This document shows, one piece after another, positions 3,726 through 23,095 of a DNA stretch of 64,000 nucleotides. How positions within the stretch are numbered: position 1 is the stretch's first letter; every line of letters starts with the position of its first letter. Both the position numbers and the translations under genes were made by a program. The notes under the pieces are model-generated. The model searched no databases and had not been told where the DNA came from. It saw nothing but the letters and a program-made list of their open reading frames with translations. Origin of the DNA: Methylocystaceae bacterium (GTDB lineage: Bacteria; Pseudomonadota; Alphaproteobacteria; Rhodospirillales; Terasakiellaceae); assembly GCA_013373205.1 (NCBI GenBank), contig JABXIG010000003.1, positions 496,001-560,000 on the forward strand. Reading direction: 5' to 3'.

Positions 3726-4778
3726 TTAGTACGGTGGTAAACGATCTTTAAAGCGGAACTCGGGTAAGAAGTTCATGAGACGGTGACGCCATGCATGCCA
3801 CCAAGTTGCCAGTACTGTGATTGCAAGCCCTAGAATGAAAAGGCTTATATAGTCAGTATCAATTCCAATGCTTTTGGTTGCCCAACTCAGCAAAAAGCTC
3901 ATGTAAATAATGCCTGTTGAAATAAATGAACGTCGGTCTATCACAAGGGCGATGATTACAAACAAGCACAAGAGAATAGCTGTTAGAGCATAGGATATTA
4001 GATTGCCATCATAATAAAGATTGAAGGCAAAAACATTTAACAGAGCTGGCCCAGCAAGTAGATGCAGCCAAAAAGCTGTCTTGGAAGCATTGCCAATACG
4101 GTGTGGATCACGAAAGTCAAAATAAAGGCCGATGATTAATGTGATTAGTCCGAATAAAAGAATACTGGCAGCAAGAGCAGGCTGAACGGTCAAGTCCAGC
4201 ATTTTGGTGGGAGTAATATGTTCATATTCCGTGGTGTAAACGAGACCTCCAAGTGAAAGCATGCTCATTAAGCCAGTGCAGCCAGCAATAAAGGCAAGGT
4301 AAGGAAAACGATAAAACCTAAACATTACGATTAACAGGCAAAACACTATCAATGAGCAGACGAAAAGGCTTGAAGGTGTCAGGTTTGATATCATGCCTTC
4401 AGCCATGGTGATTAGGGCGACTATCGTGGTAATGGCAAACGCACTTGTCGCGATAATACTTGGAAGTACCATACGTCTTTTTTTAATAAAGTAATGGGAC
4501 AGAAGAATACTTAGAATAGCCATCAGGGAAGCAGAGGCAAAGGGACTACTCAGAAAGGCAAGAACACCCAAGGTTCCGGCATAGAGTATACACAAGCCAA
4601 TCGATATGAAGATTTCTGAAAAACCAAGGAAAATAGCAAAAGGCTCGTCTTCATCCGCGAGGTTTTTCTGGGCAAATTCTCGAGCCTTAGCTATCTGAAC
4701 GATAGCACTATACTGTTGTTCGTTGATTATCTCTCTTTGGATAGCAGCCTTTAAATCGTCATGGTTTAATTGTTCCAT
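3726..4778 (-). CDS. Multi-pass membrane protein of unknown function
   Basis: This 350-residue protein has a soluble N-terminal region of about 50 residues and then roughly ten hydrophobic segments separated by short basic loops. The overall plan resembles DUF2157-like inner-membrane proteins, but I cannot confirm membership. No catalytic motif is visible. It is a single gene between selO and the tmRNA gene. Confidence 0.75.
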   Translation of the reverse strand: MEQLNHDDLKAAIQREIINEQQYSAIVQIAKAREFAQKNLADEDEPFAIFLGFSEIFISIGLCILYAGTLGVLAFLSSPFASASLMAILSILLSHYFIKKRRMVLPSIIATSAFAITTIVALITMAEGMISNLTPSSLFVCSLIVFCLLIVMFRFYRFPYLAFIAGCTGLMSMLSLGGLVYTTEYEHITPTKMLDLTVQPALAASILLFGLITLIIGLYFDFRDPHRIGNASKTAFWLHLLAGPALLNVFAFNLYYDGNLISYALTAILLCLFVIIALVIDRRSFISTGIIYMSFLLSWATKSIGIDTDYISLFILGLAITVLATWWHAWRHRLMNFLPEFRFKDRLPPY

Positions 4779-5462: not shown

Positions 5463-6899
5463 ATGCTGAAAAATTTCTTTGATGAAATGCATGCCGAAAG
5501 CGGGGAAGTTCGTGAGCCTTACGAAACCTATTCCGCCTGGCTGCATTCTACCCAGGTGGACGAACTGGTACGTTGCCATGAACAGGCCGATCTGATTTTT
5601 CGCCGTGTCGGGATTACCTTTAACGTATATGGTGCCGACGGTGGGGTGGAACGCCTTATTCCCTTTGATATCGTGCCGCGTATTATTTCAGCTAGTGAAT
5701 GGGAATTGATTGAACGTGGCGTGATCCAGCGAGTCAATGCACTGAACGCTTTTTTACATGATATTTATCATGATCAGGCGATCTTGAAATCTGGCCTGAT
5801 CCCGCCTGACCTGATCTTGACGAATGAAGCTTTTCGCCCTGAAATGCTTGGTCTGACCCTGCCGCACCATGTGTACTCGCATATCTCTGGTGTGGATATT
5901 GTGCGTGTGGATGAAGAAACTTTTTATGTGTTGGAAGACAATGCGCGCACCCCCAGCGGGGTTTCCTATATGTTGGAAAACCGTCAGGCTATGATGCGTC
6001 TGTTCCCTGACCTGTTTGCCAAACATCGCGTGGCACCGGTCAGCCATTATCCTGAATTGCTGTTGGAAACGCTTAGTTCCGTCGCGCCCAAGGGCAACAG
6101 CCAGCCGACCATTGTGTTGCTGACACCGGGGCAATTTAATAGTGCTTACTTTGAACATGCTTTCTTAGCACAAGAAATGGGAATTGAGTTGGTGGAAGGT
6201 CAGGACCTGTTTGTCGATGAGGGCTATGTCTATATGCGCACCACACGCGGCCCCCGCCGTGTCGATGTGATCTATCGTCGGATTGATGATGATTTCCTCG
6301 ACCCGCTTGCCTTTAGGCCTGATAGTGCGCTAGGTGTGCCGGGGCTGCTGGCAGCTTACCGCATGGGCAATGTGTCCATCTGTAATGCGGTTGGCGGCGG
6401 GATTGCTGATGATAAAGCGATCTATACCTATATGCCTGACATCATTAAATTCTATCTCGCTCAAGAACCGATCTTGAAGAATGTGCCGACCTATAATCTG
6501 CGCCGTAAAGATGATCTGGCTTATGCGCTGGAGAATATGGAAAAGCTGGTGGTGAAAGAGGTTCATGGCTCCGGTGGGTACGGGATGCTGGTGGGGCCAG
6601 CTTCGACCAAAAAGCAGGTGGCGGAATTTAAGGAAAAGGTCAAAGCCGATCCGGCTAATTTCATCGCTCAGCCGACATTAAGCCTGTCGACTTGCCCGAC
6701 CTTTGTCGATCAGGGGATTGCACCGCGTCACGTGGATTTGCGCCCTTTTGTTCTGTCAGGACGGCAAACGAAGGTGGTGCCTGGCGGCCTGACACGGGTT
6801 GCGATGGAAAAGGGATCACTGGTGGTGAATTCATCACAAGGTGGCGGTACCAAGGATACATGGATTTTGGAGGGGGCAAATGCTAGGACGCGCCGCTGA
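5463..6899 (+). CDS. Circularly permuted ATP-grasp family protein
   Basis: The 478-residue protein belongs to the circularly permuted type 2 ATP-grasp group. Its blocks include ENARTPSGVSYMLENR near residues 160-175 and VKEVHGSGGYGM near 365-376. ATP-grasp enzymes ligate a carboxylate to an amine or thiol through an acyl phosphate, so a peptide-like bond-forming reaction is expected; the substrate is not known. The start has a strong GGAGAGGGA ribosome site. The gene overlaps the next one by 20 bp and is first of the Anbu operon. Confidence 0.92.
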   Translation: MLKNFFDEMHAESGEVREPYETYSAWLHSTQVDELVRCHEQADLIFRRVGITFNVYGADGGVERLIPFDIVPRIISASEWELIERGVIQRVNALNAFLHDIYHDQAILKSGLIPPDLILTNEAFRPEMLGLTLPHHVYSHISGVDIVRVDEETFYVLEDNARTPSGVSYMLENRQAMMRLFPDLFAKHRVAPVSHYPELLLETLSSVAPKGNSQPTIVLLTPGQFNSAYFEHAFLAQEMGIELVEGQDLFVDEGYVYMRTTRGPRRVDVIYRRIDDDFLDPLAFRPDSALGVPGLLAAYRMGNVSICNAVGGGIADDKAIYTYMPDIIKFYLAQEPILKNVPTYNLRRKDDLAYALENMEKLVVKEVHGSGGYGMLVGPASTKKQVAEFKEKVKADPANFIAQPTLSLSTCPTFVDQGIAPRHVDLRPFVLSGRQTKVVPGGLTRVAMEKGSLVVNSSQGGGTKDTWILEGANARTRR

Positions 6900-8642: not shown

Positions 8643-9377
8643 ATGAGTTATTGCTTGGGCATGTTGCTGGATGCTGGGTTGGTATTTATGTCCGACACCC
8701 GCACAAACGCAGGGGTGGATAGTATTGCCTCTTACCGTAAAACCTTCTTGTTTGATGAAAAGGATGATCGCCGCATTGTGATTTTGGTCGCGGGTAATCT
8801 GGCGATTACACAAAATGTCATCAGCCGTCTGGAAGAATGTCTTGAACATGATGATCCAACTTGCAACATCTATTCAGCCACCAGCATGTTTGATGTGGCG
8901 CGGATTGTCGGTTCAGCCGTGCGTGATGTATTCAAGGAAGAAGGCGAAGCTTTAAAAGCGCATGGCGTGGAATTTTCCGCAAGCTTCATCGTTGGCGGGC
9001 AAATTGCCGGGCGGCGCATGCGTTTGTTTAATGTCTATTCAGCGGGCAACTTTGTTGAAGCCACGAATGAAACCCCCTATTTCCAAATCGGGGAAACCAA
9101 ATATGGGAAGCCGATTATCAAGCGTGTTTTAACCCCGCGCACATCCATCCCTGAAGCGGTGAAATGTGGGCTGGTGTCGTTTGATTCTACGATGAATGCC
9201 AATCTTTCTGTTGGCTTACCCCTAGATTTGACGATCATTCCGCGTGACCAGCTTGGCTTAACGGAAAGCCACCTGATCGCAGAGGATGATCCTTATTTCA
9301 GCAATATTGGCAAGATTTGGGGGGAAGGTCTGCGTGCCTTATTTGCAACCCTTCCTGATCCCAAATGGGTGCGTTAA
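8643..9377 (+). CDS. anbu: Anbu, proteasome-like protease
   Basis: This 244-residue Ntn-hydrolase of the Anbu (ancestral beta subunit) group is related to HslV and proteasome beta subunits. After removal of Met, Ser becomes the N-terminal nucleophile (MSYCLG). The supporting residues are D18 (SDTRT) and K33 (YRKTF). Many Anbu proteins use Thr or Ser here, so it is probably active or weakly active. Anbu forms open lock-washer-like multimers rather than closed rings, and its substrates are unknown. It is last in the operon, 15 bp after the transglutaminase-like gene, and its end overlaps the convergent DUF2270 gene by four bases. Confidence 0.95.
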   Translation: MSYCLGMLLDAGLVFMSDTRTNAGVDSIASYRKTFLFDEKDDRRIVILVAGNLAITQNVISRLEECLEHDDPTCNIYSATSMFDVARIVGSAVRDVFKEEGEALKAHGVEFSASFIVGGQIAGRRMRLFNVYSAGNFVEATNETPYFQIGETKYGKPIIKRVLTPRTSIPEAVKCGLVSFDSTMNANLSVGLPLDLTIIPRDQLGLTESHLIAEDDPYFSNIGKIWGEGLRALFATLPDPKWVR

Positions 9378-10051
9378 CCCATCCCAACCCCTTGATATCG
9401 TCGATCCAGCCTTGAAATTTTGTCATGATAAAGTGTTGCAAGCGCGACGACGATCCAACTGGCGTGGAAGGCGATATGCATGAAAATGACAAATTCACCA
9501 GTGATCGGGCCAATGGCTGCGCGATCAAAAATCTCGTCAATGGTCCCAATGGGGGTGGGATGGATGATTAGCTTACCATAATAGGCAATCGCTTGTATGG
9601 TTAACAGCCAGGCGTAACTACGCCTCAAACGTCGACCAATGGCGCGTATCATACTAATATGGTGGCGCGGGTGGATGTAGTCTTTTGCCAGAATTTCGTG
9701 CCAGTCGCCATGACGTTCATAGTCTTTGCCCAGCAGCATGGGCGCGTAAAGTTCTGTTTCAATGTGACGGGCACGGGCGCGCCAGACGTTAAAATAGCGA
9801 TAGCGCCGCGCTTCAAATACCAGAAATACAATCACCAGCAAGCCAACCAGTACCAAAGGCAGGGGCGAGGCATTTTGTCCGCTAAAAGTAATGGAAAAGG
9901 CAATGCCAGTTGTGACCACGGCCCAGTTGGTAGTGTTGTCCAGTCGGGTTCGCCAGGTGGTGGAGCGATAAACCTCACCACGGTACAGGTGGGCAAGAGC
10001 CCCGAGTTCGGCCGAGGTGAAATCTTTCATTTCATTTTTTTCTTTGGTCAT
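9374..10051 (-). CDS. DUF2270 family membrane protein
   Basis: The 225-residue protein carries the DUF2270 N-terminal signature (SAELGALAHLYRGEVYRS) followed by a paired hydrophobic hairpin at about residues 42-85. Two further hydrophobic segments lie near the C terminus. Its role is not established. It is transcribed away from the small-peptide locus, and the shared intergenic region carries two LexA boxes in mirror orientation. It may therefore be part of the SOS response. Confidence 0.88.
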   Translation of the reverse strand: MTKEKNEMKDFTSAELGALAHLYRGEVYRSTTWRTRLDNTTNWAVVTTGIAFSITFSGQNASPLPLVLVGLLVIVFLVFEARRYRYFNVWRARARHIETELYAPMLLGKDYERHGDWHEILAKDYIHPRHHISMIRAIGRRLRRSYAWLLTIQAIAYYGKLIIHPTPIGTIDEIFDRAAIGPITGEFVIFMHIAFHASWIVVALATLYHDKISRLDRRYQGVGMG

Positions 10052-10119
10052 TTTTATACAATCCCTGTTTTTCTTACAGAGTGCGACATTGACGCACAGG
10101 TTTCAACCCTGCAAAAATA

Positions 10120-10134
10120 GAACATTAAAAGAAC
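10120..10134 (-). promoter_or_regulatory. LexA box facing the DUF2270 gene
   Basis: GAACATTAAAAGAAC is GAAC-N7-GAAC, the reverse of the alphaproteobacterial SOS box GTTC-N7-GTTC. Read on the minus strand it lies 69 bp before the DUF2270 start codon. It forms the left arm of a 20-bp inverted repeat (10116-10135 with 10155-10174, 19 of 20 matching). Confidence 0.75.
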
Positions 10135-10155
10135 AAACCTTGACACGTGAGTAGT

Positions 10156-10170
10156 GTTCTATTAATGTTC
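10156..10170 (+). promoter_or_regulatory. LexA box in front of the small-peptide transcript
   Basis: GTTCTATTAATGTTC is an exact GTTC-N7-GTTC direct repeat. It follows a TTGACA -35 box at 10140-10145 and covers the expected -10 position, so bound LexA would block RNA polymerase. It is 33 bp upstream of the 27-codon gene. Confidence 0.8.
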
Positions 10171-10202
10171 TATTTAACGAGTCGCTGATTTGGAGATGTA
10201 AT

Positions 10203-10286
10203 ATGTATATTCCGACGTTTGCTAAAGAATTTCTCGCTCTGGGTAGTATCTTTGTCGCGGGTTATGCCTGGTCCTTTATTTTATAA
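10203..10286 (+). CDS. 27-residue membrane peptide under LexA control
   Basis: The frame runs ATG to TAA, encodes 27 residues beginning MYIPTFAKEF, and has a GGAG ribosome site seven bases before the start. Residues 9-27 are hydrophobic enough for one membrane span, with a positive charge at K8. It lies directly downstream of a LexA box and is followed by a second small gene and a strong terminator, so it is on its own short transcript. Small SOS-induced inner-membrane peptides are known, for example the 29-residue Caulobacter division inhibitor SidA. Functional equivalence here is inference from size, topology and regulation only. Confidence 0.7.
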   Translation: MYIPTFAKEFLALGSIFVAGYAWSFIL

Positions 10287-10317
10287 TCGCAAAAAGAACA
10301 AAACAGGAATTTGAGAG

Positions 10318-10497
10318 ATGACTTATCGTGAATTAGGGGAAGCGCGGATTCTAAAGCGCCCCAGCCAGCAAGAGTTTTTAAAACCGGTTCGTCGTCCGGT
10401 GCAACAAGACGGGGCTGCCCAAGACTGGCAGAGTCTGGGCCAAGCGACGACGCAGTTTTTACGCCATGTCAAACCGGCGTGTGTGACTGCCTCTTAA
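10318..10497 (+). CDS. 59-residue hypothetical protein, same SOS transcript
   Basis: A short frame with ATG at 10318 and a GAGAG sequence just upstream encodes a soluble, basic, glutamine-rich protein of 59 residues with no recognised domain. It lies 31 bp after the 27-residue peptide gene and before the hairpin terminator at 10522, so the two should be co-transcribed from the LexA-boxed promoter. No transmembrane segment is visible. Confidence 0.6.
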   Translation: MTYRELGEARILKRPSQQEFLKPVRRPVQQDGAAQDWQSLGQATTQFLRHVKPACVTAS

Positions 10498-10521
10498 AAG
10501 GGAGTGTCGGTTTGATTTTTT

Positions 10522-10589
10522 GCGAAACGGTGTGTGCATGTGTTTTGAGCTTCGCCCAAAAGCTCCACCACATCCGTTTCGCAATTTTT
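10522..10589 (+). terminator. Two-level hairpin terminator
   Basis: GCGAAACGG (10522-10530) pairs with CCGTTTCGC (10574-10582) and encloses a second stem GAGCTT/AAGCTC (10547-10552 with 10560-10565). A run of seven T follows. It closes the small-peptide transcript. Confidence 0.75.
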
Positions 10590-10658
10590 TTGAACATCTG
10601 ATTTTCTACGATGGCCGGAAGCTTCCTAATGCCAGATGGTATTCTAAAAAGTACAAAC

Positions 10659-11072
10659 CTAGTTCAGGGATAATTCATTATCTGGAACCGGGGGAAGGCT
10701 ACGTTTCTTACCGTTTTCGTCAATGGCAACAAAGGTAAAAATGCCTTCTGTGACTTTTTCGCGTTTTAATGTGGCGCGGCGCAAAGCCCATAGTTCGACA
10801 CGGATCGCCATGGATGTGTTGCCTTCACGCACAATGTCGGTGTACACACAGACCACATCACCGACCCGCACGGGTTTTAAGAATGACATGGCCTCAACGC
10901 CAACGGTTGCAACACGCCCTTGTGCCCGCCAGCCTGCTGTAATGCCGCCCGCTAAGTCCATTTGCGACATGACCCAGCCGCCAAAAATATCGCCGTTGGG
11001 GTTTGTATCGCCGGGCATGGCGAGGGTGCGGATCGCGGGGGTGCCTGTGGGGGAGATGTCATTCTTAGCCAT
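10659..11072 (-). CDS. yciA: Acyl-CoA thioesterase, YciA-like hotdog protein
   Basis: A 137-residue single hotdog domain with the YciA-type block NPNGDIFGGWVMSQMDLAGG near residues 24-43. That block contains the catalytic Asp and the hotdog helix. YciA-type enzymes hydrolyse a broad range of acyl-CoA esters in the cytoplasm. The gene stands alone and is divergent from parE. Confidence 0.9.
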   Translation of the reverse strand: MAKNDISPTGTPAIRTLAMPGDTNPNGDIFGGWVMSQMDLAGGITAGWRAQGRVATVGVEAMSFLKPVRVGDVVCVYTDIVREGNTSMAIRVELWALRRATLKREKVTEGIFTFVAIDENGKKRSLPPVPDNELSLN

Positions 11073-11198: not shown

Positions 11199-13190
11199 TT
11201 GTCTACGGATTTATTTGAGAACGACACACCGAAGGTTGAAGGCGACTATACCGCGCAGGATATTGAAGTCCTTGAAGGGTTGGAGCCTGTGCGCAAGCGC
11301 CCGGGCATGTATATTGGTGGCACGGATGAACGTGCCTATCATCACTTGGTTGCCGAAATTCTCGATAACTCTATGGATGAAGCTGTTGCCGGACATGCCA
11401 GCCGGATCGAACTGGAACTGGATGAAAATGGCTATGTCACCGTGCGCGATAATGGTCGTGGGATCCCGGTTGACCCGCACCCTAAATTTAAAGATAAATC
11501 TGCCCTTGAAGTGATCCTGACCACGTTGCACTCAGGTGGTAAGTTTTCCGGTAAAGCCTATCAGACATCTGGTGGTTTGCACGGTGTTGGGATGTCTGTG
11601 GTGAACGCGCTTTCCGATGTGCTGACAGTTGAAGTCGCGCGCGATCGTACGCTTTGGCGCCAGACCTTTAGCCGTGGTATTGCGCAAACGAAACTGACAA
11701 ACGAAGGTCAGGTCAACAATCGTCGCGGTACGACCATTTCTTTCCATCCGGATCCTCAAATTTTTGGTGCACGTTTGCAGTTTAAACCTGCGCAACTTTA
11801 CAAGATGGCCCGTTCCAAAGCCTATTTGTTTAAAGGCGTGGAAATTCGTTGGAAATGTGCAGAAAGCTTACTCAAAGATGGTGACAAAACACCAGCACAA
11901 GGGGTCTTGCACTTCCCGGGGGGGCTGTCTGATTACCTGACACATGTTCTGGAAGACCGTGAAGTAAAAACAGATGCACCTTTTGCAGGGGATGTGAAAT
12001 TTCCTGATGAGCAAGGCAAAGTCGAATGGGCGATCGCTTGGCCGGAAGATGAAGAAGCTTTCTTTAATTCATACTGTAATACCGTACCGACACCGTTGGG
12101 CGGCACACACGAACAGGGGTTTCGCAATGCGCTGACCAAAGGTATTCGCGCTTATGGGGAACTGATTAACAATAAGGCAGCATCCAAAATTACCGCAGAT
12201 GACGTGATTAATGGGGCCTGCATTATGCTGTCGGCCTTTATCCGTGATCCGCAATTCCAAGGTCAGACCAAGGAAAAACTGGGCACACAGGAAGCGGCTA
12301 AGCTGGTTGAAACGGCCATTCGTGATAATTTTGATCATTGGCTTGCGGGAAATCCGGAAATTGGCACGCAACTGGTTGAGTATTTGATTGAACGTGCTGA
12401 AGTCCGTCTGCGCAAGAAAAACGCCAAACAGATGAAACGTCAGTCAGCAACCAAACGCTTGCGTCTGCCGGGGAAATTGACCGATTGCACCCGTTCCGTT
12501 TCAGAAGGGACTGAAATCTTCTTGGTGGAGGGTGATTCTGCAGGCGGTTCTGCTAAACAGGCACGCAACAGGGATACTCAGGCCATCCTGCCTTTGCGGG
12601 GGAAGGTTCTGAACGTGGCGTCAGCCAGCATTGATAAAATCCATGCCAACCAGGAACTGAATGACCTGGGCGAGGCTCTTGGGTGTGGAACACGTGAAGC
12701 CTTTGAACTGGATGATTTGCGTTATGAAAAAATCATCATTATGACCGATGCGGACGTGGACGGGGCGCATATCGCCTCATTGCTGATGACATTTTTTTAT
12801 CAGGAAATGCCGGGACTGGTTGAGTCTGGACGGCTGTATCTCGCACAGCCCCCGCTTTATCGTCTGGCAACGGGTGCCAAGAGCATTTATGCCATGGATG
12901 ATCTTGAAAAAGATGAATTGATGGAAAAAGAATTTAAAGGCAAGAAGGTCGATATCAGCCGCTTTAAAGGTCTGGGTGAAATGCCGCCTGCCCAATTAAA
13001 AGAGACGACGATGGACCCAAAAAAACGCACCTTGTTGCGTGTGACGGTCCCCCATGGCCACAGTGATGAAGATATCGAAGGGGCCAAAGAAACTCAGGAT
13101 TTGGTTACCAGGCTGATGGGTAAAAAACCGGAACTGCGGTTTCAGTTTATTCAGGAACGGGCAAAATTTGTCGAAGATTTGGATGTGTAA
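11199..13190 (+). CDS. parE: DNA topoisomerase IV subunit B
   Basis: The 663-residue protein has the full GyrB/ParE plan. The GHKL ATPase (ILDNSMDEA, DNGRGIP, GGLHGVG) is followed by the transducer domain and the TOPRIM domain with EGDSAGGSA near 442 and DADVDGAH near 517. The absence of a long GyrB insertion and the overall length favour ParE. It supplies ATP-driven decatenation with ParC. The likely start is a TTG at 11199; no better ATG matches the family N terminus. Confidence 0.95.
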   Translation: MSTDLFENDTPKVEGDYTAQDIEVLEGLEPVRKRPGMYIGGTDERAYHHLVAEILDNSMDEAVAGHASRIELELDENGYVTVRDNGRGIPVDPHPKFKDKSALEVILTTLHSGGKFSGKAYQTSGGLHGVGMSVVNALSDVLTVEVARDRTLWRQTFSRGIAQTKLTNEGQVNNRRGTTISFHPDPQIFGARLQFKPAQLYKMARSKAYLFKGVEIRWKCAESLLKDGDKTPAQGVLHFPGGLSDYLTHVLEDREVKTDAPFAGDVKFPDEQGKVEWAIAWPEDEEAFFNSYCNTVPTPLGGTHEQGFRNALTKGIRAYGELINNKAASKITADDVINGACIMLSAFIRDPQFQGQTKEKLGTQEAAKLVETAIRDNFDHWLAGNPEIGTQLVEYLIERAEVRLRKKNAKQMKRQSATKRLRLPGKLTDCTRSVSEGTEIFLVEGDSAGGSAKQARNRDTQAILPLRGKVLNVASASIDKIHANQELNDLGEALGCGTREAFELDDLRYEKIIIMTDADVDGAHIASLLMTFFYQEMPGLVESGRLYLAQPPLYRLATGAKSIYAMDDLEKDELMEKEFKGKKVDISRFKGLGEMPPAQLKETTMDPKKRTLLRVTVPHGHSDEDIEGAKETQDLVTRLMGKKPELRFQFIQERAKFVEDLDV

Positions 13191-21977: not shown

Positions 21978-22005
21978 TTGATCTTGTATCTTTTGTTCTG
22001 ATACT
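21978..22005 (+). promoter_or_regulatory. Promoter of the HsdR_N-type gene
   Basis: TTGATC (21978-21983) and GATACT (22000-22005) are 16 bp apart. The -10 element lies inside the LexA box. The predicted start near 22012 fixes the translation start at 22037 rather than at any upstream codon. Confidence 0.55.
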
Positions 22006-22009
22006 GTTC
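21995..22009 (+). promoter_or_regulatory. LexA box
   Basis: GTTCTGATACTGTTC is an exact GTTC-N7-GTTC. Together with the two boxes near 10145 it fits a longer shared form, TGTTCTNNTANTGTTC. It overlaps the -10 region of the downstream nuclease-like gene. Confidence 0.65.
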
Positions 22010-22036: not shown

Positions 22037-23095
22037 ATGGATTTGTCAGAGGAAGTGCGTACGTTAGCAAAACGTGCAAAGGAGCTTATTGGAAGTATAG
22101 AAACTGAGGAAGCGACTAAAACAGCCCTTGTTTTACCAATGTTGAGAGCTTTGGGATATGATGTTTTCAACCCTCTAGAAGTGGTTCCAGAGTTTAACGC
22201 TGATGTAGGTATTAAAAAGGGTGAAAAAGTTGATTATGCGATTTACAATGGCGGTAAATTGTCTGTTCTAATAGAGTGCAAGAAAATTGGTGAGCCCTTA
22301 GCTGGGTGTCATGCTAATCAGTTATACCGCTATTTTACTGTCACAGAAGCTCGGTTCGGTATTTTGACAAATGGTATAATATATGAGTTTTATTCAGATC
22401 TAGATGAGCGCAACAAGATGGATAATAAACCATTTTTCATCTTTGATATTTTATCTAATAGTGAATCGGATCTTCGTGAATTAAAAAAATTTGGCAAGGT
22501 TAAATATCAAGAAGATACGATATTATCGGCTGCTAATAACTTGAAATATGCTCGGCTATTACATGCAGTTATTACAGAAGAATTAGAAAACCCCTCTGAA
22601 GAATTTGTTAAATTACTAGGCACAAGAGTCTATGAGGGGCGTATGACCTCAAATGTTCTTGAATGGATGAGTAATCTTGTCAAGGACGCATTGGCGCATA
22701 CAATTCGAGCTCGTGTACGGGCGAATTTGGAATCTGCATTAGATAAGGGAAACTTAGAAGAAGAGACTACAGAGGAGGTTGATGATCTTGAAAGAAACGG
22801 GGTCATCACAACAGAGCAAGAAATAGAAAGCTTTAATATAGTAAGGGCAATTTTGTCTGAAGTTGTAGAAACTGACCGTATTTTTATGCGAGATTCAAAG
22901 ACTTATTGTGCCATTATATTCGATGACAATAATCGTAAACCTATTTGCAGATTATATTTGGATGGTCGGCAATGGCGTGTCGGGACATTTGAAGAAAGGC
23001 AGGAGCGTAAAAACGATATTAATCAAGTCTCAGATATTTTTAAGCTGAAAACACAGTTGAAGGCTGCGATTAGTAGGTATGAAGCTTCAAGCTAA
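22037..23095 (+). CDS. HsdR N-terminal domain protein, stand-alone restriction-type nuclease
   Basis: The 352-residue protein has the type I restriction HsdR N-terminal fold. ATKTALVLPMLRALGYDV near 26-43 leads to a PD-(D/E)xK centre with D66 (KVDYAI) and E80-C-K82 (LIECKK), followed by NQLYRYF and FGILTNG blocks. The helicase motor and specificity subunits of a type I system are absent. The second half has no recognised domain. The ATG at 22037 is chosen over an upstream frame opening because promoter and LexA box lie just before it. Codons are more AT-rich than in the neighbouring ribosomal genes. SOS control suggests a role in damage or phage response. Confidence 0.8.
   Translation: MDLSEEVRTLAKRAKELIGSIETEEATKTALVLPMLRALGYDVFNPLEVVPEFNADVGIKKGEKVDYAIYNGGKLSVLIECKKIGEPLAGCHANQLYRYFTVTEARFGILTNGIIYEFYSDLDERNKMDNKPFFIFDILSNSESDLRELKKFGKVKYQEDTILSAANNLKYARLLHAVITEELENPSEEFVKLLGTRVYEGRMTSNVLEWMSNLVKDALAHTIRARVRANLESALDKGNLEEETTEEVDDLERNGVITTEQEIESFNIVRAILSEVVETDRIFMRDSKTYCAIIFDDNNRKPICRLYLDGRQWRVGTFEERQERKNDINQVSDIFKLKTQLKAAISRYEASS

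What the first reader, a model, noticed from the sequence alone, without database searches (positions are those of the whole stretch)
10116..10286. SOS-controlled locus for a 27-residue membrane peptide
Two exact alphaproteobacterial LexA boxes sit back to back (GAAC-N7-GAAC at 10120 and GTTC-N7-GTTC at 10156) and form a 20-bp inverted repeat around a TTGACA element. The right box lies directly before a short transcript with a good ribosome site, a 27-codon single-span peptide, a 59-codon gene and a strong terminator. Size, topology and regulation resemble Caulobacter SidA, an SOS-induced peptide that blocks cell division, but the sequence is different as far as I can tell. It could be an unannotated checkpoint peptide.
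Basis: partly seen in the sequence, partly recalled or inferred. Interest (0 to 1): 0.85.

Follow-up and report, generated by a model that had tools for sequence, protein, structure and literature searches.

The report
SOS-controlled membrane micropeptide family in Alphaproteobacteria
A 27-residue membrane peptide behind a double DNA-damage switch is a real, conserved gene and belongs to a small-peptide family found in several groups of Alphaproteobacteria, where it may act as a brake on cell division while DNA is repaired.

Summary
Two exact LexA boxes flank a TTGACA element; the right box covers the -10 of a promoter reading into a 27-codon frame. In all 6 Terasakiella genomes held, the inverted double operator, promoter and 27-residue frame are conserved (85-100% identity, mostly synonymous change). 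The 59-codon frame is conserved but diverges faster. Boxes of this form also precede lexA, recA and a umuD-like gene in this genome. Peptide-profile searches reached short open frames in other families of the order (21 of 24 fetched loci beside yciA and/or parE, as here) and in three families outside it. Of 66 accepted entries (65 distinct loci), 44 have an exact box within about 150 nt upstream; five control motifs hit 0 or 1. No Pfam, NCBIfam or PHROGs family covers it. Against: 15 of 23 relatives elsewhere in the order lack an exact box; two outside families were first singled out partly by their boxes; function is untested; Caulobacter SidA could not be compared because its sequence was not reached. 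Most likely: a LexA-repressed single-span micropeptide that docks on a membrane partner, probably the divisome, to delay division after damage. It works like SidA; kinship with SidA is open.

The parts
10120..10134 (-). Left LexA box (GTTCTTTTAATGTTC on the minus strand)
   Evidence: present in 6 of 6 Terasakiella genomes
10156..10170 (+). Right LexA box (GTTCTATTAATGTTC), overlapping the -10 element
   Evidence: present in 6 of 6 genomes, 36 bp from the left box in five and 35 in one
10140..10145 (+). -35 element TTGACA
   Evidence: read; invariant in 6 of 6 genomes
10163..10168 (+). -10 element TAATGT, 17-nt spacer, inside the right LexA box
   Evidence: read; invariant in 6 of 6 genomes
10176..10184 (+). 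Conserved leader block AACGAGTCG, about where the transcript should start
   Evidence: identical in 5 of 6 genomes; role unknown
10203..10286 (+). ORF1, 27-residue single-span peptide MYIPTFAKEFLALGSIFVAGYAWSFIL
   Evidence: conserved, synonymous change prevails; hydropathy 1.82 over 17 residues; homologues
10296..10310 (+). GAACAAAACAGGAAT, one base off a LexA box, just before ORF2; may also serve as ribosome site
   Evidence: block GAACAAAAnnGGAAT identical in 6 of 6 genomes amid poorly conserved flanks
10318..10497 (+). ORF2, 59-residue protein without a clear membrane span, N-terminus conserved (Y.ELGEARILKR)
   Evidence: found in 6 of 6 Terasakiella genomes; among 297 genomes of the order the only hit outside the genus is weak (E 0.003, a stop inside)
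10520..10591 (+). Intrinsic terminator: hairpin 10520-10584 and T run
   Evidence: similar hairpins seen by eye in 4 of the 5 relatives
9374..10051 (-). Divergent neighbour, DUF2270 membrane protein; its start is 68 nt from the left box
   Evidence: neighbour in 5 of 5 Terasakiella relatives, no match in the other loci (flanks of about 1.5 kb)
10659..11072 (-). Neighbour: YciA-type acyl-CoA thioesterase, marks the conserved locus
11199..13190 (+). Neighbour: ParE (frame; named by eye), marks the conserved locus

Best explanation
LexA bound to two inverted boxes shuts a sigma-70-type promoter. When DNA damage triggers LexA cleavage, a short transcript is made that encodes a 27-residue inner-membrane peptide (short cytoplasmic N-terminus with a K/R-D/E pair, one helix, almost no periplasmic tail) and, in Terasakiella, a 59-residue partner. 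The peptide then docks through conserved helix residues (F..EF.AL...F...Y.W) on a specific membrane protein, most likely in the septal FtsW/FtsI/FtsN complex, and delays division until LexA is restored. Shown here by sequence: operator, promoter elements, frame, conservation, and a family across several alphaproteobacterial families with LexA boxes in many of them. Inferred: LexA binding, damage induction, membrane insertion, topology, target and phenotype.
For: Operator and promoter geometry. lexA is present with its own box 44 nt before it; recA (named by eye) and a Peptidase_S24, umuD-like gene also follow boxes. The frame evolves as protein: window against T. pusilla 12 synonymous and 0 amino-acid-changing codon differences. 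Homologues found by peptide profile or peptide query carry exact boxes in 44 of 66 accepted entries against 0, 1, 0, 1, 0 for five control motifs. In family f78 the inverted double operator recurs in 22 of 34 entries, usually at a different spacing (27 bp), as if strong repression were selected again. 21 of 24 fetched loci elsewhere in the order sit beside yciA and/or parE. Small membrane proteins acting on FtsW or FtsN are known damage-induced division inhibitors: SidA, DidA and YneA (passages of PMC4211646, and PMC13396833). In Caulobacter about 97% of SOS promoters carry only one box (passage of PMC12700426), so a conserved pair is unusual and fits a product harmful to growing cells (inference).
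Against: No experiment. Nothing in the sequence names FtsW or any target. 15 of 23 accepted homologues elsewhere in the order have no exact box, among them all seven of genus g49; most of the 15 keep one GTTC half-site in a T-rich stretch (by eye), while lexA in three g49 genomes looked at keeps an exact box. f78 and f34 were picked from 21 weak class hits partly because I saw boxes there, so their first members are not independent evidence; the later search within f78 used the peptide alone. Many f78 loci come from a few genera. Conservation towards one helix face is marginal (permutation p 0.045 to 0.10). Only 14 of 388 class genomes hit at E 0.05, two of them apparently noise, so the family is patchy or too short to detect.
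Confidence: 0.5

Rival explanations
1. SOS-induced membrane toxin of the TisB/DinQ sort: the peptide inserts and lowers the membrane potential, giving dormancy instead of a division block.
For: Same size class, hydrophobic, LexA boxes; DinQ is described as an SOS-regulated toxic single-span peptide (start of the abstract of PMC3567139 in the search listing). A tight double operator fits a toxic product.
Against: Residue identity along the helix is conserved across families, which suits binding a protein better than forming a pore (inference); the window peptide has no charged residue after E9, that is, none in its hydrophobic stretch; no Rfam family above its gathering score over 801 bases, though an unlisted antisense RNA is not excluded.
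Confidence: 0.2
2. SOS-induced regulator of another membrane protein (transporter, sensor kinase, protease or respiratory complex), not of division.
For: Conserved helix residues and K/R-D/E pair without toxin features; other small membrane proteins act this way (general knowledge).
Against: SidA, the characterised alphaproteobacterial SOS micropeptide, acts on division. In the 17 loci whose neighbours I listed, no common membrane target was recognised by eye.
Confidence: 0.22
3. The left box serves the divergent DUF2270 gene, and the double operator is two single operators back to back, not one strong one.
For: DUF2270 starts 68 nt from the left box and is the neighbour in 5 of 5 Terasakiella relatives.
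Against: No good -35 lies 17 nt from the mirrored TAATGT (read). Two f78 loci with the double operator (L092, L094) gave no DUF2270 match in about 1.5 kb on each side; other f78 loci were not tested for it.
Confidence: 0.25
4. Chance: ordinary intergenic DNA with LexA-like words and a spurious short frame.
For: Single boxes are common by chance.
Against: Conservation in 6 of 6 genomes, synonymous bias, homologues with the same operator.
Confidence: 0.01

Closest known systems
SidA of Caulobacter crescentus (SOS-induced inhibitor acting on FtsW)
   Same: 29-residue inner-membrane protein under LexA control (passages of PMC4211646 and PMC12700426).
   Different: Here two inverted boxes; locus beside yciA-parE in most order relatives. 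Sequence relation unknown: the SidA sequence was not reached. In 15 genomes chosen as possibly close to Caulobacter the family model gave 20 weak hits at E up to 10, nearly all inside long frames (one in a 53-codon and one in a 95-codon frame, not inspected), and it is not known that any of them holds sidA.
YneA, SosA, ChiZ (damage-induced division inhibitors of Gram-positive bacteria)
   Same: Small integral membrane proteins; YneA acts on FtsW, the others are predicted to bind it (passages of PMC13396833).
   Different: YneA has a LysM domain outside the membrane (same passages) and all three are longer (recalled); no sequence likeness was tested.
TisB and DinQ of Escherichia coli
   Same: SOS-linked hydrophobic micropeptides.
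   Different: DinQ is toxic and has antisense RNAs (start of the abstract of PMC3567139); TisB features are recalled. Here a conserved helix motif and no known RNA partner.
DidA of Caulobacter crescentus
   Same: Damage-induced small membrane division inhibitor.
   Different: 71 residues and SOS-independent (passage of PMC4211646).

Membership tests
LexA regulon (alphaproteobacterial box GTTC-N7-GTTC) | Exact box overlapping the promoter, LexA encoded in the genome | tested here: met
   boxes also before lexA, recA and a umuD-like gene
LexA regulon (alphaproteobacterial box GTTC-N7-GTTC) | LexA binding and damage induction | not testable with these tools
   needs ChIP or gel shift, and RNA measurement
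SidA-type division inhibitor | About 29 residues, single span, LexA control | tested here: met
   27 residues, hydropathy 1.82 over 17 residues, boxes; span and control are sequence predictions
SidA-type division inhibitor | Sequence homology to C. crescentus SidA | not tested
   SidA sequence not reached: the original paper is not held and no named Caulobacter record was fetched; the indirect attempt is no test
SidA-type division inhibitor | Binds FtsW and causes filamentation | not testable with these tools
   bench work
TisB/DinQ-type SOS toxin | Antisense RNA antitoxin at the locus | tested here: inconclusive
   no Rfam family above its gathering score over 801 bases; unlisted RNAs cannot be excluded
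Any Pfam, NCBIfam or PHROGs family | Match to a curated model | tested here: not met
   window peptide and ORF2: none in Pfam or NCBIfam. 25 family members: best hits one member each at E 0.55 (Pfam), 0.0079 (NCBIfam TrgA) and 0.042 (PHROGs). PADLOC: none for the window peptide and ORF2

The most novel reading that the evidence does not exclude
The peptide is the old SOS checkpoint effector of a large part of the Alphaproteobacteria: one unannotated micropeptide family, (K/R)(D/E)F.AL...F...Y.W, kept under strong LexA control by repeated evolution of inverted double or triple operators, with Caulobacter SidA as a diverged member or a local replacement.
Probability: 0.35. Interest if true: 0.8.

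Novelty: new variant of a known kind. Interest (0 to 1): 0.62.

Why it matters
SOS-induced division inhibitors differ from group to group, and I know of none described for alphaproteobacteria outside Caulobacter (recalled; searches). A conserved micropeptide too short for normal annotation, marked by its motif and its LexA operators, gives a direct candidate in Terasakiella and in other alphaproteobacterial families, testable by expressing one 27-codon frame. It also shows a way to find such genes: peptide profile first, operator as a check.

Tried and rejected
Tried without result: curated family libraries for both frames and for 25 family members; an f78 peptide against plasmids and the window peptide against phages; one of the two viral contigs found by pattern against phage records. 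ORF2 outside the genus: one weak hit in 297 genomes, taken as chance. Helix-face analysis: marginal. The Rfam microRNA hit at the inverted repeat (27 bits against a gathering score of 88, E 0.0087) is taken as chance. SidA: I searched papers, asked for the original paper (not held), looked for passages and tried to find Caulobacter-like genomes with a CtrA query typed from recall. Comparing it by eye with the PDB chain 4qpj (shown), which I recall as Brucella CtrA, my letters were nearer to that protein, so the choice of genomes is doubtful and no conclusion is drawn.

Rejected: artefact (conservation); a phage or plasmid gene in the window (stable chromosomal neighbours in 21 of 24 loci).

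Limits of the counts: of the order search (143 of 317 genomes at E 1, mostly noise) only the 30 best loci were fetched; five more hits between E 0.002 and 0.009 were not. Rows dropped before the operator count: L085, L172, L186 and L196, 4 of 70, by a rule on frame length and tail; three of the four carry boxes. Genome G698 is counted twice in the f78 set (L179, L192); it has no box. Of the 14 other genomes with the double-box pattern I looked at two loci.

Papers: passages only of PMC4211646, PMC12700426, PMC13396833 and PMC13384398; all others were seen only in search listings.

Full report
What is there. The window lies in a 4.09-Mb genome. Its genus is Terasakiella (Rhodospirillales): of the five other genomes that the tool places in its genus, two share contig length and sequence with records of T. 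pusilla DSM 6293 and T. brassicae. Between a divergent DUF2270 gene and an antisense YciA-type thioesterase followed by parE lies a unit of about 0.5 kb: LexA box, TTGACA, LexA box over TAATGT, leader, 27-codon frame, 59-codon frame, hairpin with T run.

Is the box real in this genome? There are 91 exact boxes; 65 lie inside open frames of 100 codons or more and 26 do not. The 26 include boxes before lexA, recA (named by eye) and a Peptidase_S24, umuD-like gene. lexA was found in 19 of 20 genomes tested in the order. In 17 of the 20 lexA loci printed (these 19 and the window's genome) an exact box of the form GAAC-YAAANTA-GAAC stands upstream; in one (G064) there is none, in two it was cut off by the print.

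Is the pair more than chance? The inverted pair with a gap of 15-30 bases occurs in 20 of 317 genomes of the order: once in each of the 6 Terasakiella genomes, always at this locus, and in 14 others. The reversed pattern occurs in 2 of 317. Seven of the 14 belong to one genus (g43), where the match is part of a longer array of GAAC/GTTC words; I looked at two of these, and in the one that shows the gene the array precedes recA. The other 12 were not examined.

Is the frame real? All 6 Terasakiella genomes have a 27-codon frame of the same length at the same place, 85-100% identical. Codon differences are mostly synonymous: 7 to 14 synonymous against 0 to 5 changing per pair; window against T. 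pusilla 12 against 0. The -35, the -10 and the GAAC/GTTC words of both boxes are invariant in 6 of 6. ORF2 is present in 6 of 6, with 42-69% identity to the window's copy and a conserved N-terminus; it is under weaker constraint (first 28 codons: 7-14 synonymous against 6-11 changing per pair). Before ORF2 the block GAACAAAAnnGGAAT is invariant in 6 of 6; it is one base away from a LexA box.

How far does it reach in the order? A profile of the six peptides (A1) was run over 317 genomes, and the 30 best loci were fetched. Apart from the 6 Terasakiella, 23 of the other 24 are short frames with the same core; one (L085) was dropped. By translated search 21 of those 24 loci have YciA and/or ParE beside the peptide, so they are positional counterparts. 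An exact pattern for the core hit 24 stretches in the named genome collection: 19 alphaproteobacterial records (two Terasakiella; one labelled Methylocystaceae whose contig equals that of a genome in the Terasakiella group; 16 labelled Rhodospirillaceae or Rhodospirillales) and 5 from other phyla, where the match lies in a long frame, is cut by a stop or ends a longer frame, and which I take as chance. 17 of the 19 have YciA and/or ParE hits nearby.

Outside the order. A profile of 24 peptides (A3) over 386 class genomes gave 22 genomes with a hit at E 0.1, mostly noise. Among the 21 outside hits I looked at six; f78 and f34 stood out by a short frame with the core and, in part, by their boxes. 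A profile of 29 (A4), which then included them, over 388 genomes gave 14 with a hit at E 0.05 and added f45. In f78, 41 of 79 genomes match one of its peptides at E 0.1. f78 has large genomes; I guess Beijerinckiaceae from sizes, untested. In the two f34 loci a gene that reads as DNA polymerase III alpha (named by eye) starts 169 and 183 nt after the start of the peptide match.

Check by operator. For 70 entries I located the peptide by profile, accepted those with a frame of at most 110 codons ending within 12 codons of the match (66 accepted), and looked for exact boxes from 150 nt before the match to 9 nt inside. Terasakiella 6 of 6, all double; other order families 8 of 23, one double; f78 27 of 34, 22 double; f34/f45 3 of 3, one double. 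Sum 44 of 66. Five control motifs of the same form gave 0, 1, 0, 1 and 0. Cautions: one genome is counted twice in f78, many f78 loci are close relatives, and f34 and the first f78 loci were singled out partly by their boxes; the order set and the later f78 set were drawn by peptide alone. The negative side is the 15 order homologues without an exact box: most carry TTTTGTTCT or a like half-site in a T-rich stretch (by eye), but I cannot show that LexA binds there.

How it most likely works. See Best explanation. The step from LexA-controlled single-span micropeptide to division brake rests on analogy with SidA, DidA and YneA (passages). In the window peptide the hydrophobic stretch runs from F10 to the last residue, so there is almost no periplasmic part; f78 relatives have up to five more residues. 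Several conserved positions (F6, E9, F10, L13, F17, Y21) tend to one helix face, but A12, A19 and W23 do not, and the statistic is marginal.

Novelty. No Pfam, NCBIfam or PHROGs family covers it, and I found no paper on it in open-licence PubMed Central. The kind, SOS-induced single-span inhibitor, is known; this family, its spread and its recurrent inverted double operators look new. If SidA proves to be a member, the finding becomes the wider family of SidA.

Noticed in passing
window 21995-22009 and 22037-22999 (+): Third exact LexA box of the window, 27 nt before the likely start of a protein with a type I restriction HsdR N-terminal domain; a possible SOS-controlled gene.
   Followed up: partly
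L018, L209, L251 (window's genome, outside the window): Three proteins that look like paralogues, each near an exact AT-rich LexA box; two were scanned and match PG_binding_1, one just at the cut-off. A LexA-linked multigene family of unknown role.
   Followed up: partly
window 10296-10310 and the same place in L034-L038: Invariant block GAACAAAAnnGGAAT before ORF2, one base off a LexA box, in 6 of 6 Terasakiella genomes.
   Followed up: partly
L290 about 6446-6532 and L291 about 4446-4532 (viral contigs): Two nearly identical viral contigs encode a 28-residue peptide with a core like this family, its start and stop overlapping neighbouring frames, no LexA box upstream in L291. It may be a phage-borne relative or chance.
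   Followed up: partly
L050 (genus g43, same order): An array of several GAAC/GTTC words starting about 110 nt before recA (named by eye); seven genomes of the genus match the double-box pattern.
   Followed up: partly
L191, L195, L197 (family f78): Three LexA boxes in alternating orientation before the peptide.
   Followed up: no
lexA loci among L112-L130: Many lexA promoters carry TTTTGTTC about 20 nt after the LexA box, like the half-site before box-less peptide genes (by eye).
   Followed up: no
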